Shown: piece after piece, positions 649 to 60,370 of the stretch
Numbering within the stretch: position 1 is the stretch's first letter
Layout: each line of letters opens with the position of its first letter
Source of the DNA: Clavibacter sp. A6099
GTDB taxonomy: Bacteria > Actinomycetota > Actinomycetes > Actinomycetales > Microbacteriaceae
Assembly: GCF_021919125.1 (NCBI RefSeq)
Contig: NZ_CP083439.1
Location: 1,240,001-1,304,000, forward strand
DNA length: 64,000 nt
Reading direction: 5' to 3'
The notes under the pieces: model-generated
Databases searched by the model: none
Told to the model about the DNA's origin: nothing
What the model saw: only the letters and a program-made list of their open reading frames with translations
Position numbers and translations under genes: made by a program

Positions 649-654
649 GTCCTC

Positions 655-660
655 AGTATC
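655..660 (-). promoter_or_regulatory. -10 element, leaderless promoter of arginase-family gene
   Basis: On the minus strand GATACT is followed by 6 nt (GAGGAC) and then the GTG start at 648. This spacing puts the transcription start on the start codon. No clear -35 is visible. Confidence 0.5.
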
Positions 661-752
661 CCGTGCGGCGCCGGACATGGCGATGCCCGCCGCCTGCGGT
701 CGTGGCCGCGGGCGACGGGCATCGTCGTGGGGAGGAGCTGTCGCTCCGCCCG

Positions 753-1403
753 CTACTGCATGTCGCGGTAGCGCTTCGCCTCGGCGAGCGCCTGGCGGAG
801 GCCGTCGGCGTCGAGCGCCGGGCCGTAGCCGGGGGTGTCGCGCTGGATGCGCCAGCCCTCCGCGAGCGGTCCCGCGTCGACGGCGTCGTAGCCGAAGGAG
901 TCGAGGATCGAGGTGACGGTCGCCTTCGCCTCGGCGTCGTCGCCCGCGATCACCAGCGCGCGGCGGCCAGGCGTGCCGGCGGGGGTGCCGTGCTCCGTGA
1001 GGTCGGCCGCGTAGATGTGGTTGAACGCCTTCACGACCTTCGACTCGGGCAGGTGACGCTGCAGCATCTCCGCGGTCGTCGTGGTCTCGTCGTCGAGCTC
1101 GGCGATGTTGCCGTCCCGCTCCGGGTAGTAGTTGTCGGTGTCGATCACGATCTTGCCCGCGAGGGGCGCGACCGGGACGCTGTCGATGTTCTTGAGCGGG
1201 ATGGTGACGACGACGATCTCGCCGGCCTCGGCGACCTCCTGCACGGTGGCGGCGCGGGCGTGGTCGCCCAGCTCGTCGATGAGGTCGGTGAGGGTCTCCG
1301 GGCCGCGGGAGTTGGCGATCACCACGTCGTGGCCGGTGGAGGTGAACAGACGGGCGAGCTGGCTGCCGATGAGTCCGGCGCCGATGATTCCGATGTTGGT
1401 CAT
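753..1403 (-). CDS. NAD(P)-binding oxidoreductase, F420-dependent NADP reductase-like
   Basis: The protein of 216 residues opens with a Rossmann dinucleotide-binding motif, IGIIGAGLIGSQLA, at residues 4-17, and a later VIDTDNYYP segment typical of the NADP oxidoreductase coenzyme F420-dependent family (COG2085). Such proteins reduce or oxidise NADP, but in non-F420 organisms the true partner is often unknown, so the F420 link is not claimed. The ATG at 1403 begins the Rossmann strand directly. A GTG at 1424 would add seven residues with no domain content. There is no strong ribosome site or -10 in the usual position. It lies alone between the arginase-family gene and the PspA gene. Confidence 0.8.
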   Translation of the reverse strand: MTNIGIIGAGLIGSQLARLFTSTGHDVVIANSRGPETLTDLIDELGDHARAATVQEVAEAGEIVVVTIPLKNIDSVPVAPLAGKIVIDTDNYYPERDGNIAELDDETTTTAEMLQRHLPESKVVKAFNHIYAADLTEHGTPAGTPGRRALVIAGDDAEAKATVTSILDSFGYDAVDAGPLAEGWRIQRDTPGYGPALDADGLRQALAEAKRYRDMQ

Positions 1404-1497
1404 GCTGAGGGGAACCGGATCCACGGGGGCGGAATTCCCCTCCGGGACGACGACGGGCGCCGCCCCGGAGGACGGCGCCCGTGGATCCGACGGTCGG

Positions 1498-2241
1498 CTA
1501 CTCGCCGGACGTGACCTGCTTCGGGGCGGATCCGCCGGACTTGAGGGCGGCGAGGCGCGCCTCGACCTCGGTCAGCTCGCCGAGGTCCTCGAGCTCCTCG
1601 AACTGCGCGTCGAGGCTGGAGGCCTGCAGCTCCTCGGCGCCGCGGACGCGGGCCTCCTCGCGGCGGATCTTCTGCTCGAAGCGGCTGACCTCGCTGGTGG
1701 GATCCATGATGTCGATGCTCTTCATGGCGTCCTGCACCTGCGACTGCGCCTGCACCGTCTTCTGGCGGGCGTTCAGCTCGTCGCGCTTCGACGACAGCTG
1801 CTGGAGCTTGCCGCGCATCGTGTCGAGGCCCTGCTTGAGCTTCTCGACGACCTCGGTCTGCGACGCGATGGTGGGCTCGGCGCCCTTCGCCTCGCTCTCC
1901 GACTGCATCTGGCGCTGCAGCGCGACACGGGCGAGCGCGTCGAACTTGTCGGCGTTCGGGGTGTTGCCGGCGTTCCGGTACTCGTCGGCCTTGGTGCTCG
2001 CGGCGAGGGCCTTGCGACCCCAGTCCTGCGCCGCCTGGACGTCCTCGCGGTGGTCGTCCTCGATCATCCGCAGGTTGCCGATGGTCTGGGCGACGGCGCT
2101 CTCGGCCTCGCGGATGCTCTCCGTGTAGTCGCGGACCATCTGGTCCAGCATGAGCTGCGGGTCCTCGGCCTGGTCGATGAGGTTGTTGATGTTGGCCTTC
2201 GCGAGCTGGGCGATGCGGCCGAGGATGGACTGCTTGGACAT
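1498..2241 (-). CDS. pspA: PspA/IM30-family membrane-stress protein
   Basis: The 247-residue protein starts MSKQSILGRIAQLAKANIN and continues as an almost uninterrupted charged coiled coil, the pattern of PspA/IM30/Vipp1 proteins. These peripheral proteins bind damaged membranes through the N-terminal amphipathic helix and assemble into rings. The start at ATG 2241 is preceded by GAAGGAGCAGCACCC, a good ribosome site. An upstream in-frame ATG at 2289 lacks one. The gene lies 84 bp downstream of the TPM-domain membrane gene and is probably transcribed with it. A C-terminal tail of about 15 residues after the coil is not conserved to my knowledge. Confidence 0.88.
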   Translation of the reverse strand: MSKQSILGRIAQLAKANINNLIDQAEDPQLMLDQMVRDYTESIREAESAVAQTIGNLRMIEDDHREDVQAAQDWGRKALAASTKADEYRNAGNTPNADKFDALARVALQRQMQSESEAKGAEPTIASQTEVVEKLKQGLDTMRGKLQQLSSKRDELNARQKTVQAQSQVQDAMKSIDIMDPTSEVSRFEQKIRREEARVRGAEELQASSLDAQFEELEDLGELTEVEARLAALKSGGSAPKQVTSGE

Positions 2242-2325
2242 GGGTGCTGCTCCTTCTCGTCTGGTGCTTCGTCGGAATGGGTTGATCATGGGTCGCTCTC
2301 GTTCTCGTCGTCGTGCTGGTCGTCG

Positions 2326-6030: not shown

Positions 6031-6036
6031 TAGGCT
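6031..6036 (+). promoter_or_regulatory. -10 element, leaderless promoter of pdxH-like gene
   Basis: TAGGCT, then 6 nt (CGGCGC), then the ATG at 6043. This is the clearest example of the leaderless arrangement seen through the window. Confidence 0.6.
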
Positions 6037-6042
6037 CGGCGC

Positions 6043-6735
6043 ATGGCTGACGACGACGACTCCACCACGGTCCGCGACCTCCTGAAAGGCGCGAAGCCCG
6101 CACCCCACGACTTCCCGCAGCTCGACCCGGCGCACCTGCCGGATGACCCGATCGACCTCGTCATCGCGTGGATCCGCGACGCCGTCGCCCACGACGCCGC
6201 CGAGCCGAACGCGGTCGTCCTCGCGACCGCCGACGCGGATGGCCGCCCGACCGCGCGCACGCTGCTGCTCAAGGACGTGACGCGCACCGTCGACGACGAG
6301 CCCGGCGCCCTCTGGTTCTCGTCGCTCGCCGACAGCCCCAAGGGGCGCGACCTCGAGGCCAACCCGCGCGCGGCGCTCGTCGCGTACTGGCGGGAGCGCG
6401 GGCGGCAGATCCGCGCGACCGGCCCCGTCTTCCACGGCGACCGCGAGGTGAGCGAGCGCGACTTCCTCTCGCGGCACCCGTCGTCGCGCGCCGAGGTCAT
6501 CGCGGGCGACCAGAGCGAGCCGATGCCCGACGCCGCCGAGCGCGACGCGCGGATCGCCCGAGCGCGGGAGGCCGTGGAGGCGGATCCCGAGCTCGTCGCC
6601 GAGTCCTGGCGCGCGTACGTGCTCCAGCCGTCCGTCGTCGAGTTCTGGCAGGCGACCGAGGACCACGGGCAGCTGCGGATCATGTACCGGTCGGGGTCCG
6701 ACGGATCCTGGTCGCACACGCTCGTCTGGCCCTGA
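6043..6735 (+). CDS. pdxH: Pyridoxamine 5'-phosphate oxidase-family protein
   Basis: The 230-residue protein matches the length and landmarks of pyridoxamine/pyridoxine 5'-phosphate oxidase. These are an N-terminal substrate-loop region, PTARTLLLKDV and LWFSSLADSPKGRDLEANPRAALV for the FMN-binding split barrel, and a C-terminal VEFWQATEDHGQLRIMYR followed by a short end. The classic final RL-x-P ending is altered (SHTLVWP), so activity on PNP/PMP is probable rather than certain. The enzyme makes pyridoxal phosphate in the cytosol using O2 and FMN. It stands alone, driven by a leaderless promoter. Confidence 0.85.
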   Translation: MADDDDSTTVRDLLKGAKPAPHDFPQLDPAHLPDDPIDLVIAWIRDAVAHDAAEPNAVVLATADADGRPTARTLLLKDVTRTVDDEPGALWFSSLADSPKGRDLEANPRAALVAYWRERGRQIRATGPVFHGDREVSERDFLSRHPSSRAEVIAGDQSEPMPDAAERDARIARAREAVEADPELVAESWRAYVLQPSVVEFWQATEDHGQLRIMYRSGSDGSWSHTLVWP

Positions 6736-6834: not shown

Positions 6835-6840
6835 CACACT
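6835..6840 (+). promoter_or_regulatory. -10 element, leaderless promoter of C26 hydrolase
   Basis: CACACT, then 6 nt (GGATCC), then ATG 6847. It keeps the A2 and T6 of the consensus. Confidence 0.4.
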
Positions 6841-6846
6841 GGATCC

Positions 6847-7617
6847 ATGCCCGCCCCCCTCCGCCGCCTCGCCGTCGTGCAGGTGACCCGCTCGCGTCCC
6901 GAGGCCGCCGCGTACAACACGCTCGTGCAGGGCCTCAACGCGCGCGTCGCCGAGGTCGCCGACGCCGCGGGCTGGCTGGTCGAGAACATCGCCGCGGAGG
7001 ACGAGGGCGTCGAGTCGCTGCTGGCCCGCACGCGCGAGGCCGACGCGGTCGTCATCATGGGCGGCGAGGACGTCGCCCCGCGCTTCTACGGCGGGCCCGC
7101 CGAGTACGAGGGCCGGTCGACGCACCGCGAGGTCGCGGACGCCGGGCAGATCGCGCTCGTCCGCCGCGCGGTCGCCGAGGGCACGCCGCTGCTCGGCATC
7201 TGCCGCGGCGCCCAGATCGTCAACGTCGCGCTCGGCGGCACCCTCCAGCAGCACATCGAGGGAGTGGGGGAGCACCGCAACGACGCGACGGAGATCACGG
7301 CCGTCATGCGGGACCACGACGTGCGCGTCGCCGCGGGCAGCCGGCTCGCGCGCGTGCTGGGATCCACCGACGTCGTCGTGCGGAGCGCCCACCACCAGGC
7401 GGTCGACCGGCCGGGCACGGGACTCCGCGTGGTCGCGGTCGCGCCCGACGGCGTGCCGGAGGCCGTCGAGCACGAGAGCGCGCCCGTCATCGGCGTCCAG
7501 TGGCACCCGGAGGACCCGGGCGCCGCGCGCGACCAGCTCCCCGCGCTGCTCGACGCGCTCGCCGACGCCTGCGCGCTGCGCGAGCCCGCCGACGCCGCGC
7601 GCACCGCGGCCGCCTGA
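6847..7617 (+). CDS. Gamma-glutamyl-gamma-aminobutyrate hydrolase-family protein (peptidase C26)
   Basis: The 256-residue class I glutamine amidotransferase-like protein carries the nucleophile elbow LLGICRGAQIVNVALGG, with Cys near residue 119, and the His-Glu pair in VQWHPED. An upstream MGGEDVAPRFYGG is typical of PuuD-like C26 peptidases. PuuD cleaves gamma-glutamyl-GABA in putrescine breakdown. Related enzymes act on other gamma-glutamyl amides, so the substrate stays open. It converges on the five-gene LacI operon at 7667-12541 and may share its regulator. ATG 6847 sits 6 nt after a -10; a more upstream start at 6772 would add a low-complexity stretch. Confidence 0.82.
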   Translation: MPAPLRRLAVVQVTRSRPEAAAYNTLVQGLNARVAEVADAAGWLVENIAAEDEGVESLLARTREADAVVIMGGEDVAPRFYGGPAEYEGRSTHREVADAGQIALVRRAVAEGTPLLGICRGAQIVNVALGGTLQQHIEGVGEHRNDATEITAVMRDHDVRVAAGSRLARVLGSTDVVVRSAHHQAVDRPGTGLRVVAVAPDGVPEAVEHESAPVIGVQWHPEDPGAARDQLPALLDALADACALREPADAARTAAA

Positions 7618-13801: not shown

Positions 13802-13807
13802 CACGAT
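13802..13807 (+). promoter_or_regulatory. -10 element, leaderless promoter of transglutaminase-like gene
   Basis: CACGAT, 6 nt (GGACCC), then ATG 13814. Confidence 0.4.
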
Positions 13808-13813
13808 GGACCC

Positions 13814-14608
13814 ATGCGCCGCGACGTCTCCTCCATGCTCGAGCTGCAGGTCTCCGGCGAGAGCGAGATGGCCTTCGCGATCGCCGTCGCCCGTGGGGCC
13901 GACATCGCGTCCGAGCACCTCTCCTTCGCCCTCGACGGACGGCCGATCGAGGCGACCGAGGTGGTCGACCGGCACGACACCCGGCTGCACGTCCTGACGA
14001 CCGGCGCGGGAGTCCTCACGATGGAGTACCGCGCGACGGTCACCGGCCGCCGCGACCCCGCGCCCGTCGACGACGTCGACCTCTGGATCTACCGCCGCCC
14101 GAGCCGCTACTGCGAGTCGGACACGCTGTTCCCCACGGCCCGCGGCGAGTTCCGCGGCCTGGACGGCCTCCCGCTCCTCGCCGCAGTGCGCGCGTTCGTG
14201 GCGGAGTCGCTGCGGTACGCGCCGGGATCCAGCCTCCCGACCGACGGCGCCGTCCGCACGCTGCTCGCCCGCCGCGGCGTCTGCCGCGACTACGCGCACC
14301 TCGTGATCGCGATGCTCCGCGCGCTCGACGTGCCCGCGCGGCTGGCCGCCGTCTACGCGCCGGGCCTCAGCCCCATGGACTTCCACGCGGTCGCCGAGGC
14401 GTGGGTCGACGGCGCCTGGCACGTGGTGGACGCCACCGGGCTCGCGCCCCGCCAGAGCCTGCTGCGGATCTCCACGGGTCGCGACGCCTCCGACACCGCG
14501 TTCCTCACCAACACCCGGAGCCTCGTGACCATCTCGCGCATGGAGGTCATGGCGACCGTCGACGAGCTCCCGGTCGACGACGTCGCCTCGGCCGTGCGCC
14601 TGGGCTGA
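13814..14608 (+). CDS. Transglutaminase-like (cysteine protease fold) protein
   Basis: The 264-residue protein has an N-terminal beta domain (about 1-100) of the kind found before bacterial transglutaminase domains. The catalytic triad follows: Cys in RRGVCRDYAHL near 157, His in DFHAVAEAWV near 193, Asp in HVVDATG near 206. Such cytosolic proteins may act as peptidases or amide hydrolases; none is well characterised. It shares neither strand overlap nor operon with the LacI gene upstream (72 bp) and has its own -10. Its stop lies in a hairpin shared with the convergent lipoprotein gene. Confidence 0.82.
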   Translation: MRRDVSSMLELQVSGESEMAFAIAVARGADIASEHLSFALDGRPIEATEVVDRHDTRLHVLTTGAGVLTMEYRATVTGRRDPAPVDDVDLWIYRRPSRYCESDTLFPTARGEFRGLDGLPLLAAVRAFVAESLRYAPGSSLPTDGAVRTLLARRGVCRDYAHLVIAMLRALDVPARLAAVYAPGLSPMDFHAVAEAWVDGAWHVVDATGLAPRQSLLRISTGRDASDTAFLTNTRSLVTISRMEVMATVDELPVDDVASAVRLG

Positions 14609-15466: not shown

Positions 15467-15472
15467 TAGGAT
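15467..15472 (+). promoter_or_regulatory. -10 element of argS
   Basis: TAGGAT, then 8 nt, then ATG 15481. The mRNA would have no leader or one of about 2 nt. Confidence 0.5.
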
Positions 15473-15480
15473 CGATCCCC

Positions 15481-17145
15481 ATGACGACCCCTGACCTGAC
15501 CGGTGCCCTGTTCGACATCGTGGCCCGGACGGCAGGACGACGACCGGGGGGCGACGCCCTCGCGCTCAGCCCCGACATGGTCGTGCTCGAGCGCCCGCGC
15601 AACCGCGACCACGGCGACTGGGCCACCAACATCGCCATGCGCATCGCGAAGCCGCTGGGCGAGAGCCCGCGCGCCATCGCGGCCGACATCGCCGAGGCGC
15701 TCGGCGAGCTGCCGCAGGTCGCGAAGGTCGACGTGGCCGGGCCCGGCTTCATCAACATCACGCTCGAGGCGGCGGCCGCGGGCGCCCTCGCGCGCACCAT
15801 CGTCGACGCCGGTCCCGCGTACGGCCGCGGGCACACGCTCGACGGGATCCGCATCAACCTCGAGTTCGTCTCCGCGAACCCGACCGGCCCGATCCACCTC
15901 GGCGGCGTGCGCTGGGCCGCGGTCGGCGACAGCCTCGCGCGCATCCTCCAGGCCGAGGGCGCGGACGTCACGCGCGAGTACTACTTCAACGACCACGGAT
16001 CCCAGATCGACCGCTTCGCCCGCAGCCTCCTCGCGAGCCACCTCGGCGAGGACACCCCCGAGGACGGCTACGGCGGCGCCTACATCGGCGAGATCGCCGA
16101 GCGCGTCGTGGCGGGGTACGACGGCGACCTCGACGCCCTCCCGCGCGAGGAGCAGCAGGAGGTGTTCCGGAGCGCCGGCACCGAGCTCATGTTCGGCGAG
16201 ATCAAGCAGAAGCTGCACGACTTCGGCGTGGACTTCGACGTGTTCTTCCACGAGGACTCGCTGCACGAGTCCGGCGCCGTCGACCGCGCCGTCGCGCGCC
16301 TGAAGGAGCTCGGCCACGTCTTCGAGGAGGACGGCGCCGTCTGGCTCCGCACCACCACGTTCGGCGACGACCGCGACCGCGTGATCATCCGCTCCACGGG
16401 CGAGCCCGCCTACATCTCGGGCGACCTCGGCTACTACCTCGACAAGCGCGAGCGCGGCTTCGAGCAGAACATCATCATGCTGGGCGCCGACCACCACGGC
16501 TACGTCGGCCGCCTGATGGCCATGGTCGAGGCGTTCGGCGACACCCCGGGCGTCAACCTGCAGATCCTCATCGGCCAGATGGTCAACCTGCTGCGCGACG
16601 GCGAGCCCGTGAAGATGAGCAAGCGCAACGGCACCATCGTGACCCTCGACGACCTCGTGGACGCGGTCGGCGTGGATGCGGGCCGCTACGCGCTCGTGCG
16701 CTCCTCCGCCGACCAGAACCTCGACATCGACCTCGCGGTGCTCGGCAAGCGCACCAACGACAACCCCGTCTTCTACGTGCAGTACGCCCACGCGCGGACC
16801 TGCGCGGTGGATCGCAACGCGGATGCGTCGGGCGTCGACCGCTCCGCGTTCGCGCCGGAGCTGCTCACGCACCCGACCGAGTCGGCGCTGCTCGGCCTCC
16901 TGCAGGAGTTCCCGCGCATCGTCGCCCAGGCCGCCGAGCTGCGCGAGCCGCACCGGGTCGCGCGCTACATCGAGGAGCTCGCGGGCTCCTACCACCGCTG
17001 GTACGACAGCTGCCGGGTGGTCCCGCGCGGCGACGAGGAGGTCACCGACCTGCATCGCACGCGCCTGTGGCTGAACGACGCGGTCAGGCAGGTGGTCGCC
17101 AACGGACTCGACCTCGTGGGCGTCTCGGCCCCCGAGCGCATGTAG
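15481..17145 (+). CDS. argS: Arginyl-tRNA synthetase
   Basis: The 554-residue class I synthetase charges tRNA-Arg. It shows the N-terminal Add1-like domain and the HIGH-equivalent in [13 protein letters not shown] (about residues 134-146). A KMSKRNG loop lies near residue 378, a Lys-bearing form, and a C-terminal helical anticodon-binding domain ends with the family's typical [13 protein letters not shown]. Length matches actinobacterial ArgRS. It heads a co-directional series with DUF2993 and lysA, a conserved actinobacterial arrangement. Confidence 0.97.
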
Positions 17146-40440: not shown

Positions 40441-40446
40441 GCGGCG

Positions 40447-40452
40447 ACCGTA
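40447..40452 (-). promoter_or_regulatory. -10 element, leaderless promoter of ogt-tag
   Basis: TACGGT on the minus strand, 6 nt (CGCCGC), then ATG 40440. Confidence 0.5.
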
Positions 40453-41026: not shown

Positions 41027-41032
41027 CGTCCG

Positions 41033-41038
41033 AGCATG
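41033..41038 (-). promoter_or_regulatory. -10 element, leaderless promoter of Lrp-type gene
   Basis: CATGCT on the minus strand, then 6 nt (CGGACG), then ATG 41026. Confidence 0.4.
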
Positions 41039-44269: not shown

Positions 44270-44275
44270 GCGGCC

Positions 44276-44281
44276 AGCGTA
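44276..44281 (-). promoter_or_regulatory. -10 element, leaderless promoter of dapD
   Basis: TACGCT on the minus strand, 6 nt (GGCCGC), then ATG 44269. Confidence 0.55.
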
Positions 44282-44336
44282 CCGATCGACGTGGCCCGTC
44301 CCGGGTCCTCCCCAGGAGCGCGTGCCGCCCCCGACC

Positions 44337-44342
44337 TAGGAT
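44337..44342 (+). promoter_or_regulatory. -10 element, leaderless promoter of dapE
   Basis: TAGGAT, 6 nt (GTCCGC), then ATG 44349. Confidence 0.55.
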
Positions 44343-44348
44343 GTCCGC

Positions 44349-47858: not shown

Positions 47859-47864
47859 TAGCCT
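47859..47864 (+). promoter_or_regulatory. -10 element, leaderless promoter of tatB
   Basis: TAGCCT, 6 nt (GTGATC), then ATG 47871. It decides for this ATG over the GTG at 47865. Confidence 0.5.
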
Positions 47865-47870
47865 GTGATC

Positions 47871-48245
47871 ATGTTCGGCCTGACGTTCGAGAAGCTGATG
47901 CTCATCGGCATCATCGCCGTGTTCCTGCTCGGCCCCGAGCGGCTGCCGGTCTACACCCAGAAGCTCGCGGATCTGGTGAAGGCCGCGCGGCGCATGGCCA
48001 CCGGCGCCCGGGAGCGCATGCGCGACGAGCTGGGACCGGAGTTCGACGAGGTCGACTGGAAGAAGCTCGACCCGCGCCAGTACGACCCGCGTCGCATCAT
48101 CAAGGAGGCGCTGTTCGAGGACGAGCCCGTCGTCACGAAGCCGCGCGTCCCCGTCGAGACGACCATCGCCCGCCGGCAGCGCCTGGAGCGCGAGGCGGCC
48201 GCCGCGTCGGCCAAGCCCGCGCCATTCGACGCCGAGGCCACCTGA
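47871..48245 (+). CDS. tatB: Sec-independent translocase protein TatB
   Basis: The 124-residue protein starts MFGLTFEKLMLIGIIAVFLLGPERLP. It has one membrane helix, the TatA/B Glu and the hinge GPERLP, then an amphipathic helix (YTQKLADLVKAARRMA). The charged C-terminus is that of TatB rather than TatA. It works with TatC, not present in the window, to export folded twin-arginine proteins. Confidence 0.92.
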   Translation: MFGLTFEKLMLIGIIAVFLLGPERLPVYTQKLADLVKAARRMATGARERMRDELGPEFDEVDWKKLDPRQYDPRRIIKEALFEDEPVVTKPRVPVETTIARRQRLEREAAAASAKPAPFDAEAT

Positions 48246-48301: not shown

Positions 48302-49219
48302 TCAGCCGTTCCCGCTGAAGCGCGCGTCCACCGCCTTCGCCTCCTCGCGGAGGGCGTCCACGACGGCGCGCACCGACGGCCGCTCGGCGCGGTCCGGGCG
48401 CAGCAGCACGTGCAGGTGCCGCTTCGACGTGACCCCCGACAGCCGCTTGACCACCACGCCCTCGTACGAGCCGGCGGTGTACCGCGGCAGCAGCGCGATC
48501 CCGTGCCCGGACGCCACGAGCGACTCCGTGATGCGCGTGTCGCTGAACCGCTGGACCACGCGGGCGGGCGCGCCCACGGCCTGCTCGATGTCGAGGAGGA
48601 TCCGGTCGAAGGGGAGGCCCTGCGGCACGCCGATCCACGGCTCGCCGCTCAGGTCGGCCGGGCTCACCGACGCCCGTCCGGCGAGGCGGTGGTCCGCGGG
48701 CATGGCGACGTCGAGCGGCTCCACCATGAGCGGGACGATCACGAGGCCGAGTCCGCGCCAGGTTCCCGCGCCCGCGAGCGAGTGGGCGATGACCACGTCG
48801 AAGTCGGCGGTGAGGTCGGCGAACGCGCGGGACGCGGGATCCCGGTCGCTCGCCCGCAGCGTGAGGTCGGGGATCCCGGCGACGCGGTCGAGGAGCCCGG
48901 GCAGCAGCATCTGCGCGGCCGTGGGGAACGTGGCGAGCGTGACCTCGCCGGACGGCTGGTGGCGGAAGTCCTCCCAGAGCGCCTCGGCACGCGCCACCGC
49001 GACGGCGATGTCGGTCGCGGTGCGGGCGAGAGCGCGGCCCGCGTCGGTCAGCACGATCCCGCGCCCCGAGCGCTCGGTGAGCGGCACGCCGGCCTCGCGC
49101 TCGAGCACCTTCAGCTGCTGCGAGACGGCGGACGGGGTGCGGCCGGCGGCGTGCGCGACGGCGCCGACGCTGCCGCGGTCGGCGAGCTCGCGGAGGAGCT
49201 CGAGCCGTCGTATGTCCAT
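48302..49219 (-). CDS. LysR-family transcriptional regulator
   Basis: The 305-residue regulator has the N-terminal winged HTH LELLRELADRGSVGAVAHAAGRTPSAVSQQLKVLE. An effector domain (about 90-295) follows, with TFPTAAQMLLPGLL and GHGIALLPRY. It faces away from the small 40-residue membrane protein gene (49335), its most likely adjacent target. It is leaderless, 6 nt after TAGCCT. Confidence 0.93.
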   Translation of the reverse strand: MDIRRLELLRELADRGSVGAVAHAAGRTPSAVSQQLKVLEREAGVPLTERSGRGIVLTDAGRALARTATDIAVAVARAEALWEDFRHQPSGEVTLATFPTAAQMLLPGLLDRVAGIPDLTLRASDRDPASRAFADLTADFDVVIAHSLAGAGTWRGLGLVIVPLMVEPLDVAMPADHRLAGRASVSPADLSGEPWIGVPQGLPFDRILLDIEQAVGAPARVVQRFSDTRITESLVASGHGIALLPRYTAGSYEGVVVKRLSGVTSKRHLHVLLRPDRAERPSVRAVVDALREEAKAVDARFSGNG

Positions 49220-49225
49220 GAAGGC

Positions 49226-49231
49226 AGGCTA
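49226..49231 (-). promoter_or_regulatory. -10 element, leaderless promoter of LysR gene
   Basis: TAGCCT on the minus strand, 6 nt (GCCTTC), then ATG 49219. Confidence 0.5.
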
Positions 49232-51270: not shown

Positions 51271-52600
51271 GGGGGATCCTCCGTCCTCGTACGGGTCCTG
51301 CGGTGGGGATGGCGGCCGTGGCCGTGCCGTGGAAGCGGGCCGTGGCGCGCTTGCGCGTCTCGCGTTCCGCGTCCGCGCTCCGCCAGTCGTCGGGCAGGAG
51401 GTGGTCGAGCACGTCGTCGATGGTGACGACGCCGACCAGCCGGTGGTTCTCGTCCACCACGGGCACGGACACGAGGTTGTAGCTCGCCATGATGCGCGAC
51501 ACCTCGGCCGCGCTCGTGTCCGCGCGCACGGGCTCCAGGCCCTGGTCGAGCAGCGTGCCGAGGCGTTCGTGGGGCGGGTAGCGCAGCATCCGCTGGAAGT
51601 GCACCATGCCGAGGAAGCGTCCCGTGGGCGGCTCGTACGGCGGCAGCGTGACGCAGACCGCGGCGCCGAGCGTGGGCGCGAGCTCGTGGCGGCGGATGAG
51701 CGCGAGGCCCTCCGCGACGGTGGCGTCTCCCGACACGATGACGGGATCCGTCGTCATGAGGCCGCCCGCGGTGTCGGGCGCGTAGCTGAGCAGCATGCGG
51801 ACGTCGTCCGCCTCCTCCGGCTGCATGAGCTCGAGCAGGGTCTCGCCGCGCTCGTCCGACAGCTGCGCGATGAGGTCGGCCGCGTCGTCCGGCTGCATCT
51901 GGTCGAGCACGTCGGCCGCGCGGTCGTCGTCGAGCGTCGCCATGATCTCGACCTGCTCGGCCTCGGGCATCTCCTCGAGCACGTCCGCGAGCCGGGCATC
52001 CGGCAGCTCCTCCGCGACCTCGAGGCGGCGCGCCTGCGGCAGGTCGAGGAGGGTGTTGGCGAGGTCGGCGGGCAGCAGGTCGGAGTAGGCGGCGAGGAAC
52101 TGGGATGCGGACTGGGCGACCCCGTCGTCCTGGAGCTCGGCGACCTCCTCCCACGTGGCGAACATGGTCGCGCCCTTGGCGAAGGGGGACGGGCTCGTGC
52201 GCGGGCGGCGGCAGAAGAGCTGCGAGACCTCCCACTCGGCCTGGCCGGACTCCTCGATGGCGACGTCCTCGATGACGGCGTTCCCGGATCCGTCGCGCAT
52301 GCTCACGCGACGCCCGAGGATCTCGGCGATGACGCGCACCTCGCCCCCGCGCTGCTCGAAGCGGCGCAGGTTGATGAGGCCGGTGGTGATGATCTGCCCG
52401 GAGCCGATGCTCGTGACGCGGCCGATGGAGAGGAACACGCGGCGCTTGCCGGGGATCTCGACGATGAGGCCCACGACGCGCGGCGGATCGTCCTTGCGAT
52501 AGACGACGAGGACGTCGCGGACGCGCCCGACGCGGTCTCCCGCGGGGTCGAACACGCTGCACCCGGCGAGCCGGGCGACGAAGACTCGGGAGGCGCTCAC
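51254..52600 (-). CDS. Soluble MgtE_N/CBS-domain protein with PRC-barrel
   Basis: The 448-residue protein has an N-terminal PRC-barrel-like region (about 5-85), then an MgtE N-domain (about 165-265) with its repeated helical units (LANTLLDLPQARR, LADVLEEMPEAEQ). A CBS pair (about 285-400) follows, with LMTTDPVIVSGDATVAEGL and LVSVPVVDENHRLVGVVTIDDVL. The MgtE transmembrane pore is absent. It looks like the Mg2+-sensing half of MgtE set free, or a partner of the DUF1003 membrane protein. GTG 52600 is leaderless (TAGATT, 6 nt). First gene of the operon. Confidence 0.88.
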   Translation of the reverse strand: MSASRVFVARLAGCSVFDPAGDRVGRVRDVLVVYRKDDPPRVVGLIVEIPGKRRVFLSIGRVTSIGSGQIITTGLINLRRFEQRGGEVRVIAEILGRRVSMRDGSGNAVIEDVAIEESGQAEWEVSQLFCRRPRTSPSPFAKGATMFATWEEVAELQDDGVAQSASQFLAAYSDLLPADLANTLLDLPQARRLEVAEELPDARLADVLEEMPEAEQVEIMATLDDDRAADVLDQMQPDDAADLIAQLSDERGETLLELMQPEEADDVRMLLSYAPDTAGGLMTTDPVIVSGDATVAEGLALIRRHELAPTLGAAVCVTLPPYEPPTGRFLGMVHFQRMLRYPPHERLGTLLDQGLEPVRADTSAAEVSRIMASYNLVSVPVVDENHRLVGVVTIDDVLDHLLPDDWRSADAERETRKRATARFHGTATAAIPTAGPVRGRRIPRGTAE

Positions 52601-52606
52601 AGAGTC

Positions 52607-52612
52607 AATCTA
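52607..52612 (-). promoter_or_regulatory. -10 element, leaderless promoter of the CBS-DUF1003-mrp operon
   Basis: TAGATT on the minus strand, 6 nt (GACTCT), then GTG 52600. Confidence 0.5.
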
Positions 52613-52646: not shown

Positions 52647-52652
52647 AAGACT
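52647..52652 (+). promoter_or_regulatory. -10 element, leaderless promoter of the stress-protein gene
   Basis: AAGACT, 6 nt (GGCCAG), then GTG 52659. Confidence 0.35.
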
Positions 52653-52658
52653 GGCCAG

Positions 52659-53327
52659 GTGACCAACCCGCTCCTCGGACGCCCGTCCCGTGCCCGCATG
52701 CCGAAGCTGCCGAAGGGGGAGCCCGTCGCCACCTACGAGACGTACGACGAGGCGCAGCAGGCCGTCGTCACGCTCGCCGAGGCGGACTTCCCGGTCACGC
52801 AGGTCAGCATCGTGGGCAACGAGCTGACGAGCGTCGAGCGGGTCACGGGGAAGCTCACGTCCGCCCGGGCCGCGGTCGCGGGAGCCGCGAGCGGCGCGTG
52901 GCTCGGCCTCTTCCTCGGCCTCGTCACGTTCCTGTTCTCGCCCGTGCCGAACATCTCCTTCGTCGTCGGCGCGGTCATCATCGGCGTCGGCTTCGGCGCC
53001 ATCTACGGGATCGTCAGCTACAGCATCACGCGCCGCCGTCGCGACTTCACCTCGGTGATGCAGGTCACGGCCACGAGCTACTCGGTGGTCGTCGAGCCCG
53101 ACTCGATGCACCGCGCGCGCGACGTGCTCGGCATCGGAGGAGCGGGCACCTCCGTCTACGGGGAGCCCGTGGTCACCGCGCCGCCGGCCGCGCCGCCCGT
53201 CTCGCGTCCCGTCGGCCCGTACGGCGAGCGCGTGCCCGAGCCCGGCGCGTCCGACGCCCCCGAGCCGACCGCGCCGCCCACGTCGACCGACCGACCCGTG
53301 GGCGAGCAGGGCACGGCAGGGGCCTGA
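52659..53327 (+). CDS. General stress protein 17M-like membrane protein
   Basis: The 222-residue protein has an N-terminal ferredoxin-like YflT/GSP17M region (about 20-65, VATYETYDEAQQAVVTLAEA, VSIVGNELTSVERVTGKL). Two membrane helices (about 73-90 and 96-125) and a second short domain follow. About 60 residues of Pro/Ala/Glu tail close the protein. The family is induced by general stress in Bacillus; here the role is not known. GTG 52659 is divergent from the CBS/MgtE_N operon over 58 bp. Confidence 0.83.
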   Translation: MTNPLLGRPSRARMPKLPKGEPVATYETYDEAQQAVVTLAEADFPVTQVSIVGNELTSVERVTGKLTSARAAVAGAASGAWLGLFLGLVTFLFSPVPNISFVVGAVIIGVGFGAIYGIVSYSITRRRRDFTSVMQVTATSYSVVVEPDSMHRARDVLGIGGAGTSVYGEPVVTAPPAAPPVSRPVGPYGERVPEPGASDAPEPTAPPTSTDRPVGEQGTAGA

Positions 53328-53357: not shown

Positions 53358-54995
53358 CTAGGCGCGTCCGGCCATCCACGCCTCGACCTCGTCGGCCGTG
53401 CGCGGGATACCGGCGGACAGGTTCTCCGCCCCGTCGCGCGTCACGAGGATGTCGTCCTCGATGCGCACGCCGATGCCGCGGAAGCGCTCCGGCACCGTGA
53501 GGTCGTCGGGCTGGAAGTAGAGGCCCGGCTCGATCGTGAAGACCATGCCGGCCTCGACGATCCCGTCGATGTACATGTCGCGACGGGCCTGCGCGCAGTC
53601 GTGCACGTCGAGCCCGAGGTGGTGGCTCGTGCCGTGCACCATGTAGCGGCGGTGGTGCTGGTTGTCGGCCTCGAGCGCCTCCTCCGCGGTGACGGGGAGC
53701 ATGCCCCAGTCGGCGACCTTCCGCGCGATGACCTGCATCGCGGCGGCGTGCACCTCGCGGAAGCGGATGCCGGGCCGCACGATCGCGAGCGCCGCGTCGG
53801 CCGCCTCCCGCACGGCCTCGTAGACCTCGCGCTGCACGTCGGTGAAGGTGCCCGAGACGGGGAGCGTGCGCGTGATGTCGGCGGTGTAGTAGCTGTCGAG
53901 CTCGACGCCGGCGTCGATGAGGATCAGGTCGCCCTCGACCACGCGGCCGTCGTTGCGGGTCCAGTGCAGGATGCAGGCGTGCGGGCCGGACGCCGCGATG
54001 GTGTCGTAGCCGACCGCGTTCCCGTCGGCCCGGGCGCGCGCGTTGAAGACGCCCTCGACGACGCGCTCGCCGCGGGCGTGCGCGACGACGGCGGGCATGT
54101 CCGCGATCACGTCGGAGAAGCCGCGGCCGGTGGTGTCGACCGCCTCGCGCATCTGGCGGATCTCGTACGCGTCCTTGACGAGGCGGAGCTCGGAGGCGTC
54201 GCGGGCGAGGAGGGCGTCGCCGTCGGCGGGATCGGTCTGCTCGGCGTCGGAGGCCACGCCCGCGGCCGCGCGTGCCTCGTCCACGCGCGCGGCGAGGGCC
54301 GGGTCGGCCTCGCGGATCACGCGCACGCGACCCGCGGCCGCGATGGCGGCGTCGACGGCGGCGAGGGGCGCGGTGGCGATCCCGAGGTCGGCCGCGACCT
54401 GGAGGAGGGAGGGGCGCGGGCCGATCCAGAACTCGCCGATCTCGGCGTTGGCGTAGAACTCGTCGCTGTCGCGGCCGGCGCGCTCGCGGAAGTAGAGGGT
54501 CGCGTCGTGCGCTGATCCGTCGGCCGCGGATCCCTCGGCCACGGGCTCGAGGACCAGGACGGCGCCGGGCTCGCTGTCGGCGCCCCAACCGGTGAGGTGG
54601 GCGAAGGCCGAGTGCGCGCGGAACGGGTGGTCGGTGTCGTTGCTGCGCTGCTTGAGTCGGCCGGCGGGGATCACGAGGCGCGTGCCGACGTGGAGGGCGG
54701 AGAGGCGGCGGCGGCGGTCGGCGGCGTAGGGCGCCTGCTCGCGGGCCGGAGGGTCGACCTCCTCGCGGTCGGCCCAGTTCGTGGACACGAAGTCGCTGAA
54801 GGCGGTGCTGGCGGGCGTGGTGCTGCGGTTGCTGGTGGCGCGGGGGACGGGGGCGTCGCCGGATCCGGGCACGGGCGTCCCGGCGGTCGCGGACACCGCG
54901 GGGGCCGCGGTCTCGGTCGTAGCCAGGGGCGCGGCCGGATCGGCGGCGATCTCGGCGGGGACGGTCTCGGACGCGGTGTCGGTGTTCTCGGCCAT
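53358..54995 (-). CDS. pepP: Xaa-Pro aminopeptidase (aminopeptidase P)
   Basis: The 545-residue M24 peptidase removes N-terminal residues before proline. About 65 Ala/Thr/Pro residues form a disordered start. The N-domain follows, then the pita-bread metal site: ILIDAGVELDSYYTADITRT (two Asp), VHGTSHHLGLDVHD (His), FTIEPGLYF (Glu) and GVRIEDDILV (Glu). ATG 54995 has GATGAT 6 nt upstream. There is no signal peptide, so it acts in the cytosol. Confidence 0.94.
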   Translation of the reverse strand: MAENTDTASETVPAEIAADPAAPLATTETAAPAVSATAGTPVPGSGDAPVPRATSNRSTTPASTAFSDFVSTNWADREEVDPPAREQAPYAADRRRRLSALHVGTRLVIPAGRLKQRSNDTDHPFRAHSAFAHLTGWGADSEPGAVLVLEPVAEGSAADGSAHDATLYFRERAGRDSDEFYANAEIGEFWIGPRPSLLQVAADLGIATAPLAAVDAAIAAAGRVRVIREADPALAARVDEARAAAGVASDAEQTDPADGDALLARDASELRLVKDAYEIRQMREAVDTTGRGFSDVIADMPAVVAHARGERVVEGVFNARARADGNAVGYDTIAASGPHACILHWTRNDGRVVEGDLILIDAGVELDSYYTADITRTLPVSGTFTDVQREVYEAVREAADAALAIVRPGIRFREVHAAAMQVIARKVADWGMLPVTAEEALEADNQHHRRYMVHGTSHHLGLDVHDCAQARRDMYIDGIVEAGMVFTIEPGLYFQPDDLTVPERFRGIGVRIEDDILVTRDGAENLSAGIPRTADEVEAWMAGRA

Positions 54996-55001
54996 CCGTC
55001 G

Positions 55002-55007
55002 ATCATC
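55002..55007 (-). promoter_or_regulatory. -10 element, leaderless promoter of pepP
   Basis: GATGAT on the minus strand, 6 nt (CGACGG), then ATG 54995. Confidence 0.35.
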
Positions 55008-55050: not shown

Positions 55051-55125
55051 TCAGCGCAGCGGCGTGAGCTGCGCGATCCCCTCGTGCTCCGTGCGGTGTC
55101 AGCGCAGCGGCGTGAGCTGCGCGAT
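55051..55125 (-). repeat. 27-bp direct repeat of the 3' end of the endonuclease/phosphatase gene
   Basis: The copies lie at 55051-55077 and 55099-55125, 48 bp apart. The gene's last codons (IAQLTPLR) and TGA are in the 55099 copy and are repeated in the same frame after the stop. Confidence 0.9.
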
Positions 55126-56124: not shown

Positions 56125-56204
56125 GACGTCCACCACACTATGGCGGCTCTCTGGGAGAGCGCCGCCGCGGCCTCCGGGCGGCCGGGCGGCATCGGGGCGC
56201 CACG

Positions 56205-56210
56205 TAGGAT
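56205..56210 (+). promoter_or_regulatory. -10 element, leaderless promoter of the PHP gene
   Basis: TAGGAT, 6 nt (GGCGGG), then ATG 56217. Confidence 0.55.
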
Positions 56211-56216
56211 GGCGGG

Positions 56217-57092
56217 ATGCCGGAGGAGCAGCCAGGTCCCATCGACCTGCACACGCACAGCTCCGTGTCGGACGGCACAGAGACGCCCGTCGAGCTCGTC
56301 GCGCAGGCCGCCGCGCAGGGCCTGTCGGCCGTGGCGCTCACCGACCACGACTCCACCGCCGGCTGGGACGACGCCTCCGCGGCCGCTCTCGCGCACGGCA
56401 TCACGCTCGTCCCCGGCATGGAGATGAGCACGCAGCTCGAGTACGCGAGCGTGCACGTGCTCGCCTACCTCTTCGATCCCGAGGACGCGGACCTCGCGGC
56501 CATGACCGCACGCGTGCGCTCCGAGCGCATGACCCGCGCCGAGGCGATGGTCGGTCGGATCTCGCGCGACTACGCGTTGACCTGGGCCGACGTGCTGGCG
56601 CAGACCACGCCCGGCAGCACCATCGGGCGGCCGCACATCGCCGACGCGCTCGTCGCCCGCGGGCACGTGCCGACCCGCACGGCCGCGTTCGAGAGCATCC
56701 TGCACTGGCAGGGCGGCTACTACCGGCCGCACTACGCGCCGGATCCGATCCTCGGCGTCGAGCTCATCACGGCCGCGGGCGGCCTGGCCGTGCTGGCTCA
56801 CCCGGGTGCCCGCGGGCCGGAGCGCGTGCTGTCGGACTCCCGCATGACCGCGCTCGTGGCGGCCGGGCTCTTCGGGCTCGAGGTGCGCCACCGCGACAAC
56901 CCGCCCGCGGCGCGCGTGCGGCTCACGGAGCTCGCGGAGCGGTTCGGGCTCGAGGTCACCGGGTCCAGCGACTACCACGGCACGGGCAAGCCGAACCGGC
57001 TCGCGGAGAACACCACGGAGCCCGCCGTGCTCGCGCGCATCGTCGAGCGCGCGACGGGCTGGGCGCCCGTCGTGCCCGTGCCCGCACCCTGA
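56217..57092 (+). CDS. PHP-domain phosphoesterase
   Basis: The 291-residue protein has the four PHP metal motifs: DLHTHSSVSDG, TDHDST, VLAHPGARG and SSDYHGTG. Relatives include the 3',5'-nucleotide-bisphosphate phosphatase RnaA/TrpH type, which degrades pAp and short RNA. The compact length and GMEMST after motif II fit that group. It acts in the cytosol. The downstream hairpin at 57127 is shared with the convergent helicase. Confidence 0.88.
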   Translation: MPEEQPGPIDLHTHSSVSDGTETPVELVAQAAAQGLSAVALTDHDSTAGWDDASAAALAHGITLVPGMEMSTQLEYASVHVLAYLFDPEDADLAAMTARVRSERMTRAEAMVGRISRDYALTWADVLAQTTPGSTIGRPHIADALVARGHVPTRTAAFESILHWQGGYYRPHYAPDPILGVELITAAGGLAVLAHPGARGPERVLSDSRMTALVAAGLFGLEVRHRDNPPAARVRLTELAERFGLEVTGSSDYHGTGKPNRLAENTTEPAVLARIVERATGWAPVVPVPAP

Positions 57093-57157: not shown

Positions 57158-57182
57158 ATCGCGCGATCCGTGCGGCGCGGCG

Positions 57183-58864: not shown

Positions 58865-58870
58865 TACGCT
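58865..58870 (+). promoter_or_regulatory. -10 element, leaderless promoter of ferritin-like gene
   Basis: TACGCT, 6 nt (GGCCCC), then GTG 58877, which fixes this start over upstream ATG 58844. Confidence 0.5.
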
Positions 58871-58876
58871 GGCCCC

Positions 58877-59605
58877 GTGCTCAAGATGTTCGGACGCCGG
58901 TCGACGACGATCGAGGCGCCCCGGGTCAGGTCCCGCGGCGAGTCGAAGCGTCGATCCCCGGCGACGACCGTGAGCGTGGACGACTTCTCGCCCGACACCC
59001 TCCGCTTCCTCGGGGCCGTCGCCTACCTGCAGCTCACGGTCTTCGAGACCCTCTCTCGCGCGGTCGCCGAGGCGCCGGACCTCGCCGGCAAGGAGGCCGT
59101 CTCGACCGCCGCCGGCATCGCGCTCGGCAAGCACCAGGCGCTCGCCGCGGAGATCAAGCGGCAGGACGGCGACCCGAGCGTCGTCATGGAGCCGCACCGC
59201 GCCGCGTTCGACCGGTTCACCGCCACCGTCGCGGGCGCCGACTGGTACGAGTGCCTCCTCTCCGCCTACATCACCACGGGTCTGCTCGACGACTTCTTCG
59301 TGCGCCTCGCCTCCGGGCTGCCGTCGGACCAGCGCCAGCGCGTCGTCGTGCTGCTGTCGTCGGGCGTGGGACAGCAGGGCATCGTCCACGCGGTGCGCGC
59401 CGGGATCCGCCGCGATCCGCGACTCGCGTCGCGCCTCGCCATGTGGGGCCGCCGTCTCGTCGGCGACACGCTGCTCGTCGCGGGCACGGCGATGCGCGCA
59501 TCCCTCGCCGACCCGGACGACGCGCGCGTGCACCTCGAGCCCGTCTTCGCGGGGATCATCACGGCCCACACCCGTCGGATGGACGCGCTCGGGCTCACGG
59601 CCTGA
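58877..59605 (+). CDS. Ferritin-like fold protein
   Basis: The 242-residue protein has a basic N-terminus (about 1-30) followed by a four-helix ferritin-like region. E/H positions such as FETLSRAV, KHQALAAEIKRQ, EPHRAAFDRF and ADWYECLLSAYITT are those used for a di-iron or related site in the MiaE-like/Rv3210c-like family. The role is not known. It lies, as in mycobacteria, next to the rhlE-type helicase and the DUF3107 gene. Confidence 0.82.
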   Translation: MLKMFGRRSTTIEAPRVRSRGESKRRSPATTVSVDDFSPDTLRFLGAVAYLQLTVFETLSRAVAEAPDLAGKEAVSTAAGIALGKHQALAAEIKRQDGDPSVVMEPHRAAFDRFTATVAGADWYECLLSAYITTGLLDDFFVRLASGLPSDQRQRVVVLLSSGVGQQGIVHAVRAGIRRDPRLASRLAMWGRRLVGDTLLVAGTAMRASLADPDDARVHLEPVFAGIITAHTRRMDALGLTA

Positions 59606-59636
59606 CGCGTCCCGCACGCTCCGGCCCCGCACGCGA

Positions 59637-59670: not shown

Positions 59671-59687
59671 TGTCGTGCGGGTGGGCG

Positions 59688-59975
59688 TCAGCCGCCGATG
59701 GCGGCCAGGTCGCGGGCATCCGCGGAGGAGCGTCGACGGCCGACGAGCAGGTCGGTGCCGGCGGCGACGAGCGCCGAGAGCGCGAGCGTCGCGATCCAGA
59801 TCGCCCCCTGGTCCCAGCGGAGGCCGGCCCATGTGAGGGCGACCCACGCGACCATGGCCGTGACGGTGCCCACGGCGGGGACCAGCAGCGCACCGTGCGT
59901 GGCGCGGTGGGGGAGCGCGTAGCGCGCGACGAGGCCGATGAGGGCGCCGAAGATCGCGACGAAGAGGAGCTCCAC
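59688..59975 (-). CDS. Small membrane protein, unknown
   Basis: The 95-residue protein has three predicted membrane helices (about 2-18, 27-50, 58-78), then a basic end. It has no domain that I recognise. GTG 59975 starts 10 nt after the DUF3107 stop, so it is probably co-transcribed with DUF3107. It lies before the hairpin shared with the ferritin-like gene. Confidence 0.72.
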   Translation of the reverse strand: MELLFVAIFGALIGLVARYALPHRATHGALLVPAVGTVTAMVAWVALTWAGLRWDQGAIWIATLALSALVAAGTDLLVGRRRSSADARDLAAIGG

Positions 59976-59985
59976 GGCCGTCGCG

Positions 59986-60210
59986 CTAGCGGACGAAGCC
60001 GATGCGCGGGGCGTCGGCGCTGCCGAGCTCCACGTAGGCGAGGTGGGCGGTGACGGCGAGGTGCGTGGCGCCCTTGTCGTCCGTGAAGGAGATGAAGGGG
60101 GAGGAGTCGCGGACGGCGTCCGTGACGGTCCGCTGGACCTCCTCGGGCGTCTGCTTGGTGCTGAAGGAGAGCTCGCGGGCGGTGTTGACGAGGCCGATTC
60201 GGATTTCCAC
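59986..60210 (-). CDS. DUF3107 small protein
   Basis: The 74-residue protein starts (V)EIRIGLVNTARELSFST and has the conserved FISFTDDKG and AYVELGS stretches. It matches the actinobacterial ATP-binding-site-free family once called TB9.4 (Rv3208A, from memory). Function is unknown. GTG 60210 is preceded by GAAAGGCACCTCCC. It is divergent from the AdnA-like gene. Confidence 0.9.
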   Translation of the reverse strand: MEIRIGLVNTARELSFSTKQTPEEVQRTVTDAVRDSSPFISFTDDKGATHLAVTAHLAYVELGSADAPRIGFVR

Positions 60211-60358
60211 GGGAGGTGCCTTTCGATGCGTCGGATGCGACGGTGCCCCCTCAGGCTAGGGCACCCGCCCGCGCGGCCCCGCGGCGTTCACTGAGGGCGG
60301 ACGGGCGGCCGGGAGGCGCGGGCCGACGCGCGGATCGGCCGTCGTCGGGGGCCGCCGG

Positions 60359-60364
60359 TAGCGT
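60359..60364 (+). promoter_or_regulatory. -10 element, leaderless promoter of the adnA-like gene
   Basis: TAGCGT, 6 nt (GGGCGC), then GTG 60371. Confidence 0.45.
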
Positions 60365-60370
60365 GGGCGC

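What the first reader, a model, noticed from the sequence alone, without database searches (positions are those of the whole stretch)
649..60370. A -10 hexamer sits exactly 6 nt before the start codon of at least 16 genes: widespread leaderless transcription
Seen directly: a hexamer with A at position 2 and T at position 6, then exactly 6 nt, then ATG or GTG. It occurs at starts 648(-), 6043, 6847, 13814, 40440(-), 41026(-), 44269(-), 44349, 47871, 49219(-), 52600(-), 52659, 54995(-), 56217, 58877 and 60371. Ten of these are T-A-N3-T (TAGGAT, TAGGCT, TAGCCT, TACGCT and similar). Near misses with 7-8 nt precede the asparaginase, HAD and argS genes. In such GC-rich DNA an A2/T6 pair at a fixed place should be rare (roughly 2% per start). 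Leaderless mRNAs are established in mycobacteria and corynebacteria. The regularity here allows start codons to be called from DNA alone and suggests a distinct set of genes (metabolism, repair, regulators) translated this way. ATP synthase and most operon-internal genes keep ribosome sites.
Basis: partly seen in the sequence, partly recalled or inferred. Interest (0 to 1): 0.7.

Follow-up and report, generated by a model that had tools for sequence, protein, structure and literature searches.

The report
Leaderless genes: promoter abuts start codon
In this GC-rich actinobacterium about one gene in seven seems to have its promoter box exactly six letters before its start codon, so its messenger RNA should begin at the start codon itself; the pattern is real and conserved, but it is the leaderless layout already known from other actinobacteria.

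Summary
In detail: 16 of 16 listed starts have NANNNT, 6 nt, then ATG/GTG; 10 are TANNNT. A gene caller blind to the motif, run on 864 kb of the same genome, finds TANNNT exactly 6 nt before 74 of 762 starts (about 2 per offset at 10-39 nt) and NANNNT before 118 (about 12 per offset). Genome-wide, TANNNT-N6-ATG occurs 335 times against 56 for the reversed pattern. These genes mostly lack Shine-Dalgarno matches, are depleted inside operons and prefer ATG. Orthologues of 11 listed genes keep hexamer and distance in 184 of 190 places, nine control genes in 7 of 155. dapD keeps it at 6-8 nt in 111 of 113 loci. Purines at -1 are rarer with 7-8 nt spacers than with 6, as expected if transcription starts on the start codon's first base. 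Best explanation: a sigma-A-type -10 element whose start site is the start codon, giving leaderless mRNA. The class is known in Actinobacteria (PMC3160421, PMC3898074, PMC3890552, PMC4633059). A distinct functional gene set is not shown. No RNA data were available.

The parts
646..660 (-). GATACT + 6 nt + GTG, arginase-family gene (start 648)
   Evidence: weakest: 6 nt kept in 3 of 8 relatives, 5 nt in the other 5
6031..6045 (+). TAGGCT + 6 nt + ATG, pyridoxamine-phosphate-oxidase-like gene (start 6043)
   Evidence: 8 of 8 orthologues found
6835..6849 (+). CACACT + 6 nt + ATG, peptidase C26 gene (start 6847)
   Evidence: 8 of 8
13802..13816 (+). CACGAT + 6 nt + ATG, transglutaminase-like gene (start 13814)
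   Evidence: 8 of 8
15467..15483 (+). TAGGAT + 8 nt + ATG, argS (start 15481), near-miss spacing
   Evidence: 8 of 8 relatives keep 8 nt
40438..40452 (-). TACGGT + 6 nt + ATG, methylguanine methyltransferase gene (start 40440)
   Evidence: 16 of 16 genus orthologues
41024..41038 (-). CATGCT + 6 nt + ATG, Lrp/AsnC regulator (start 41026)
   Evidence: 16 of 16
44267..44281 (-). TACGCT + 6 nt + ATG, dapD (start 44269)
   Evidence: 20 of 20 block orthologues; 111 of 113 loci at 6-8 nt
44337..44351 (+). TAGGAT + 6 nt + ATG, dapE (start 44349), divergent from dapD
   Evidence: 20 of 20 at 6 or 7 nt, 14 of 16 genus relatives having 7 nt
47859..47873 (+). TAGCCT + 6 nt + ATG, TatB-like gene (start 47871)
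   Evidence: NCBIfam matches are below their cut-offs; 18 of 20
49217..49231 (-). TAGCCT + 6 nt + ATG, LysR regulator (start 49219)
   Evidence: 15 of 16
52598..52612 (-). TAGATT + 6 nt + GTG, MgtE_N/CBS protein (start 52600)
   Evidence: 19 of 19 block orthologues; 27 of 32 wider loci at 6-8 nt
52647..52661 (+). AAGACT + 6 nt + GTG, YflT-domain gene (start 52659), divergent from 52600
   Evidence: 18 of 18
54993..55007 (-). GATGAT + 6 nt + ATG, M24/aminopeptidase P gene (start 54995)
   Evidence: 15 of 18, one of the 15 (L120, 87 nt off) probably chance
56205..56219 (+). TAGGAT + 6 nt + ATG, PHP-domain gene (start 56217)
   Evidence: 17 of 17
58865..58879 (+). TACGCT + 6 nt + GTG, MiaE-like gene (start 58877)
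   Evidence: 10 of 10
60359..60373 (+). TAGCGT + 6 nt + GTG, UvrD-helicase/PDDEXK nuclease gene (start 60371)
   Evidence: 6 of 7 orthologues at 6 nt; in the seventh the hit begins at residue 303 and the script found none, though its printed flank shows TAGCGT GGGCG

Best explanation
The hexamers are -10 elements (TANNNT and relaxed NANNNT) of housekeeping-type sigma-A promoters. RNA polymerase starts on a purine 7 to 9 nt after the end of the hexamer, and in these genes that purine is the first base of the ATG or GTG start codon. The mRNA therefore has no 5' leader and is translated by start-codon recognition at its 5' end, without a Shine-Dalgarno site. About 14% of genes (118 minus about 12 expected, of 762), somewhat more with 7-8 nt spacers, are organised this way, mostly first genes of transcription units. 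Shown here: position, enrichment, conservation, scarcity of Shine-Dalgarno matches, operon context, -1 base rule. Inferred: the transcription start itself, the sigma factor and the mode of ribosome binding.
For: (1) Enrichment at 6 nt in 864 kb with starts called without the motif: TANNNT 74 of 762, NANNNT 118 of 762; internal in-frame start codons as control 1 and 20 of 10852. (2) Genome-wide TANNNT-N6-ATG 335 against 56 reversed; the TTG version is not enriched, 18 against 60. (3) Shine-Dalgarno match of 5 or more in 3 of 74 against 210 of 630 starts without the motif (Fisher p 6e-9); operon-internal 11 of 73 against 235 of 621 (p 8e-5); ATG 63 of 74 against 343 of 630 (p 2e-7). (4) Hexamer at 6 or 7 nt in 184 of 190 orthologue places of 11 listed genes; nine control genes 7 of 155, never TANNNT. 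(5) dapD 111 of 113 and the MgtE-like gene 27 of 32 loci with TANNNT at 6-8 nt. (6) Purine at -1 in 52 of 173 sites at 6 nt but 7 of 91 at 7-8 nt; own genome alone 29 of 91 against 4 of 35, p 0.02. (7) The geometry equals that of mapped M. tuberculosis start sites: TANNNT 7-12 bp upstream, purine start in 85%, C commonest at -1 and T at +2 (PMC3898074, passages read).
Against: No 5'-end RNA data: no transcription start is shown. The GTG version is not above its reversed control genome-wide (131 against 135); that control is poorly matched, and GTG counts at called starts do peak at 6 nt (11, against 0-1 at 3-5 and 10-12 nt). The 648(-) site is not kept at 6 nt in 5 of 8 relatives. The 16 genus relatives are close, so part of the conservation is shared descent; within the genus the spacer itself varies little (89 of 906) against 25-27% further upstream. 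The pooled -1 test uses related sequences and has one genome twice, so its p-value (2e-5) overstates. 3 of 74 TANNNT genes still have a Shine-Dalgarno-like match of 5 or more, and 7 of 44 NANNNT-only genes. C at -1 is as common before other starts. No -35 consensus shows in the column counts.
Confidence: 0.92

Rival explanations
1. Chance matches: in a long list of starts some will have A2/T6 at a given distance.
Confidence: 0.01
2. The element is a promoter, but the mRNA keeps a very short leader of 1-5 nt or is mixed, so translation is near-leaderless rather than strictly leaderless.
For: Spacers of 7, 8 and 9 nt exist (14, 5 and 6 of 762 starts with TANNNT) and would give 1-3 nt leaders if polymerase always started 7 nt after the box; in M. 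tuberculosis starts within 5 bp of the start codon were counted as leaderless (PMC3898074, passages read).
Against: At 7-8 nt the -1 base is mostly a pyrimidine (84 of 91) while at 6 nt purines are tolerated (52 of 173), as expected if the start codon's purine is the start site in each class.
Confidence: 0.05
3. The hexamer is a translation signal acting in RNA (a non-Shine-Dalgarno ribosome site), not a promoter.
For: Fixed distance to the start codon and scarcity of Shine-Dalgarno matches in the same genes.
Against: The genes are depleted inside operons (11 of 73) and often divergent from their neighbour (43 of 73); the motif equals the actinobacterial -10 box (PMC3160421, PMC3898074); a conservation dip lies where a -35 box would be; the -1 purine rule is a start-site rule.
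Confidence: 0.02

Closest known systems
TA-led (leaderless) genes of Actinobacteria, Zheng et al. 2011 (PMC3160421; abstract, one section and passages read)
   Same: [quoted passage not shown] found in 86 of 89 actinobacterial genomes at around 20% of genes; little information in the three middle positions.
   Different: No difference in kind was found. The main text does not name Clavibacter or Leifsonia (0 occurrences each); its supplements were not seen.
Leaderless transcriptomes of Mycobacterium tuberculosis and M. smegmatis (PMC3898074, PMC4633059; passages read)
   Same: TANNNT 7-12 bp upstream of the start site, no conserved -35, C at -1; ATG or GTG but not TTG initiates at the 5' end.
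   Different: Here ATG dominates (63 of 74). Intergenic TANNNT-N6-RTG sites outside called genes are few (17 in 864 kb, several with long open frames), so this pattern gives no sign of hundreds of leaderless small ORFs.
Leaderless mRNAs of Corynebacterium glutamicum (PMC3890552; passages read)
   Same: 33% of mRNAs with a mapped start are leaderless, AUG about 79% and GUG about 21%; here 85% ATG and 15% GTG among TANNNT-6 genes.
   Different: There shown by RNA 5' ends; here only from DNA.

Membership tests
Actinobacterial leaderless genes (sigma-A TANNNT) | TANNNT at a fixed distance about 12 bp before the start codon | tested here: met
   74 of 762 starts at exactly 6 nt after the box, about 2 per offset at 10-39 nt
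Actinobacterial leaderless genes (sigma-A TANNNT) | no Shine-Dalgarno site before the start | tested here: met
   3 of 74 against 210 of 630 with a match of 5 or more
Actinobacterial leaderless genes (sigma-A TANNNT) | start codon ATG or GTG, not TTG | tested here: met
   63 ATG and 11 GTG/other, no TTG among the 73 with known context; TTG pattern not enriched genome-wide, 18 against 60
Actinobacterial leaderless genes (sigma-A TANNNT) | genes at promoters rather than inside operons | tested here: met
   11 of 73 against 235 of 621 operon-internal
Actinobacterial leaderless genes (sigma-A TANNNT) | weak or absent -35 consensus (as in M. tuberculosis) | tested here: met
   no consensus in column counts, though a conservation dip at that place
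[quoted passage not shown]
   no RNA data; the -1 purine rule is indirect support
Actinobacterial leaderless genes (sigma-A TANNNT) | translation initiates at the 5' end (70S or start-codon driven) | not testable with these tools
   no ribosome data
   73 against 73 proteins in Pfam, only the top 25 of 125 and of 107 families shown

The most novel reading that the evidence does not exclude
Being leaderless is an inherited, gene-specific trait under selection in its own right: for dapD, and nearly so for the MgtE-like gene, the -10 box has stayed 6 to 8 nt from the start codon in the sampled Actinomycetes while the spacer, the start codon's place relative to the protein and ATG/GTG all changed, as if start codon and promoter move together. 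That would make leaderless translation of a lysine/peptidoglycan precursor enzyme a regulatory feature rather than drift.
Probability: 0.35. Interest if true: 0.5.

Novelty: new member of a known kind. Interest (0 to 1): 0.3.

Why it matters
It gives a DNA-only aid for calling starts in this genome: of 86 TANNNT-N6-ATG sites in 864 kb, 76 are at or in frame with a called gene, and at four listed genes it points to a start other than the one chosen by coding score, a start whose hexamer is kept in the genus orthologues. It also names genes whose leaderless layout appears very old (dapD, the MgtE-like gene), good test cases for why leaderless translation persists. The general phenomenon is established.

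Tried and rejected
Chance was tested and rejected. A ribosome signal in RNA was considered and judged unlikely (see rivals). Leaderless small ORFs: 17 intergenic TANNNT-N6-RTG sites in 864 kb, several with long open frames that look like missed genes, so not pursued. A functional class was tested with two sets of 73 proteins and left inconclusive: 73 of the 74 TANNNT-6 genes were used (one lacks its stop inside the stretch), and 73 of a random 74 leadered unit heads (one short fragment, cut by a stretch end, was left out when the list was typed; a few others are also cut at stretch ends). A -35 consensus was not found in column counts. The reversed pattern is a poor control for GTG. In 60 genomes of the family (own included), 39 have a pattern-to-control ratio of 2 or more and 8 are below 1.2, 5 of these 8 being 1.5 Mb or smaller; the window's genome ranks 5th, so it is not exceptional. 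In one search, 166 of 168 orthologue promoters were compared; the two pepP rows without a hit were dropped, and one lysR row was placed at a doubtful 7-nt site that one search counts as missing. A gapped palindrome seen by eye before 56136(-) was not reported by the ungapped repeat finder. Paper searches: leaderless, actinobacteria, start codon, transcription start sites: 23 papers; Clavibacter with leaderless: 9, none by title on this subject; leaderless, spacer, Micrococcales: 0; leaderless, conserved, mycobacteria, start codon, GTG: 41, 15 listed; leaderless with gene prediction and others: 4; Microbacteriaceae with transcription start site: 0; 289 with two of three terms, 15 listed; leaderless with dapD: 1, unrelated by title; 132 with three of four terms, 10 listed. 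No start-site map for this genus or family was seen in the rows listed.
Full report
WHAT WAS CHECKED. The 16 places were read from the window: in all 16 a hexamer with A at 2 and T at 6 is followed by 6 nt and ATG (11) or GTG (5); 10 of 16 are TANNNT. Pfam finds a family for 15 of the 16 proteins; the other, 47871, resembles TatB in NCBIfam below the models' cut-offs.

IS IT MORE THAN CHANCE. A gene caller using only codon-pair scores was written and run on the window and 40 evenly spaced 20-kb stretches of the same genome: 796 genes, 762 with a usable start. TANNNT lies exactly 6 nt before 74 of them, 14 at 7 nt, 5 at 8 and 6 at 9, and about 2 per offset from 10 to 39 nt. NANNNT gives 118 at 6 nt and about 12 per offset at 10-39 nt. 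Internal in-frame start codons as control give 1 and 20 of 10852. In the window alone 12 of 63 called starts have NANNNT at 6 nt, the same number as the listed starts that the caller found by itself (12 of 16). In the first 20 stretches outside the window the counts are 40 (TANNNT) and 60 (NANNNT) of 350. Whole-genome patterns agree for ATG (335 against 56 for the reversed pattern) and show no enrichment for TTG (18 against 60). For GTG this crude test is negative (131 against 135), whereas GTG at called starts peaks at 6 nt (11, against 6 at 7, 2 at 8, 1 at 9, and 0 to 1 at 3-5 and 10-12 nt).

WHAT KIND OF GENES. TANNNT-6 genes rarely have a Shine-Dalgarno match of 5 or more (3 of 74 against 210 of 630), are seldom inside operons (11 of 73 against 235 of 621), are often divergent from their neighbour (43 of 73 against 180 of 621), and start with ATG more often (63 of 74 against 343 of 630). 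The NANNNT-only genes are less clean (Shine-Dalgarno match in 7 of 44), as expected if about 10 of them are chance. Column counts show no -35 consensus; G is common at the third hexamer position and at -5 and -2, and C at -1, but C at -1 is equally common before other starts. Of 86 TANNNT-N6-ATG sites in 864 kb, 63 are called starts, 13 are other in-frame starts of called genes and 10 are intergenic, several with long open frames. So the pattern is a specific start marker here, and it gives no sign of a large hidden set of leaderless small ORFs.

CONSERVATION. The block 39-59 kb was taken from 16 genus members and 4 more distant relatives. For the 11 listed genes in it, the hexamer with 6 or 7 nt is present in 184 of 190 orthologue places (one pepP hit, 87 nt off, is probably chance); for 9 other genes of the block in 7 of 155, never as TANNNT. 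Within the genus, bases differ from the window in 463 of 1826 comparisons at 30-40 nt upstream of the hexamer and 628 of 2324 at 7-20 nt upstream, with a dip to 112 of 830 at 21-25 nt, where a -35 element would be; then 104 of 996 in the six bases before the hexamer, 2 of 166 at its first base, 33 of 498 at its middle bases, 89 of 906 in the spacer, and none at the start codon (151 compared). A2 and T6 show none but were required by the search (sums by hand). The genus members are close relatives, so shared descent explains part of this. As a natural experiment, dapE has a 7-nt spacer in 14 of 16 genus members and 6 nt in the window and two others. Elsewhere in the window, 6043, 6847 and 13814 keep the hexamer at 6 nt in 8 of 8 orthologues found (9 stretches fetched), argS keeps its 8 nt in 8 of 8, 60371 in 6 of 7, and 648(-) in 3 of 8, the rest having 5 nt; ten neighbouring control genes show none in 59 orthologue places under the same rule. 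Beyond the genus, dapD has TANNNT at 6, 7 or 8 nt in 66, 33 and 12 of 113 loci (2 without), and the MgtE-like gene in 16, 6 and 5 of 32 (5 without), although the start codon's place relative to the protein, by ungapped extrapolation, shifts by up to about 50 nt.

MECHANISM. If the start codon's first base is the transcription start, a spacer of 7 or 8 nt places the -1 base inside the start-site window and a purine there should be avoided; with a 6-nt spacer it should matter less. Observed purines at -1: 52 of 173 at 6 nt, 7 of 91 at 7-8 nt (Fisher p 2e-5, sequences related); in the window's genome alone 29 of 91 against 4 of 35 (p 0.02). With the geometry of mapped start sites in M. tuberculosis (TANNNT 7-12 bp upstream, purine start in 85%, C commonest at -1, T at +2; PMC3898074, passages read), this supports start codon = transcription start = leaderless mRNA. 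The transcription start, the sigma factor and 70S initiation remain inferred.

COMPARISON. Zheng et al. 2011 (PMC3160421; abstract, one section and passages read) describe the same signal in 86 of 89 actinobacterial genomes with around 20% of genes. C. glutamicum has 33% leaderless mRNAs with about 79% AUG (PMC3890552, passages read). In mycobacteria ATG or GTG at the 5' end suffices and TTG is a poor initiator there (PMC4633059, passages read). Gene finders already model this class (PMC9581028, passages read). In a sample of 60 genomes of the same family, 39 have a pattern-to-control ratio of 2 or more, 8 are below 1.2, and this genome ranks 5th; in a phylum sample of 149 many genomes show an excess and others none. 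The finding is a well-supported new instance of a known kind. What the evidence adds is the depth of conservation at single genes and the -1 base rule.

FUNCTIONAL SET. Of 73 TANNNT-6 proteins, Pfam's most frequent families include HTH_24 (3), GNAT (3), GntR, TetR, response regulator and histidine kinase (2 each). For 73 leadered unit heads the top 25 families include none of these but hold ribosomal protein L14, an EF-Tu-type GTPase domain and trigger factor (1 each) (25 of 125 and of 107 families shown). This leans the way reported for M. tuberculosis but is too small to establish a distinct class. The five ATP synthase genes identified in the window do not carry the motif at their called starts.

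Noticed in passing
44270-44348: dapD and dapE are divergent, and both putative leaderless promoters fit back to back in 79 bp, so their -35 regions would lie within about ten bases of each other; the layout is kept in 16 of 16 genus members.
   Followed up: partly
44343-44348: A one-base difference between -10 box and start codon of dapE: 6 nt here, 7 nt in 14 of 16 genus relatives.
   Followed up: partly
646-660: Arginase-family start 648(-): five of eight relatives have GATACT only 5 nt before GTG, so either the true start or the promoter differs.
   Followed up: no
49335-49457: A 40-residue open frame with a Shine-Dalgarno-like AGGAG, found in 16 of 16 genus relatives at 87-100% identity, no Pfam family.
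   Followed up: no
56137-56166: Before the Exo_endo_phos gene 55099-56136(-) lies a nearly palindromic stretch (GGCGGCGCTCTCCCAGAGAGCCGCC); of the 25 nt printed for relatives, CCCAGAGAGCCGCCATAGT is in 15 of 15 genus members. The ungapped repeat finder gave nothing.
   Followed up: partly
G000:C1:2186226-2191692 and 2801127-2806593: Three pattern hits recur at one constant distance of 614901 bases, which suggests a repeated segment of about 5.4 kb or more, perhaps an rRNA operon.
   Followed up: no
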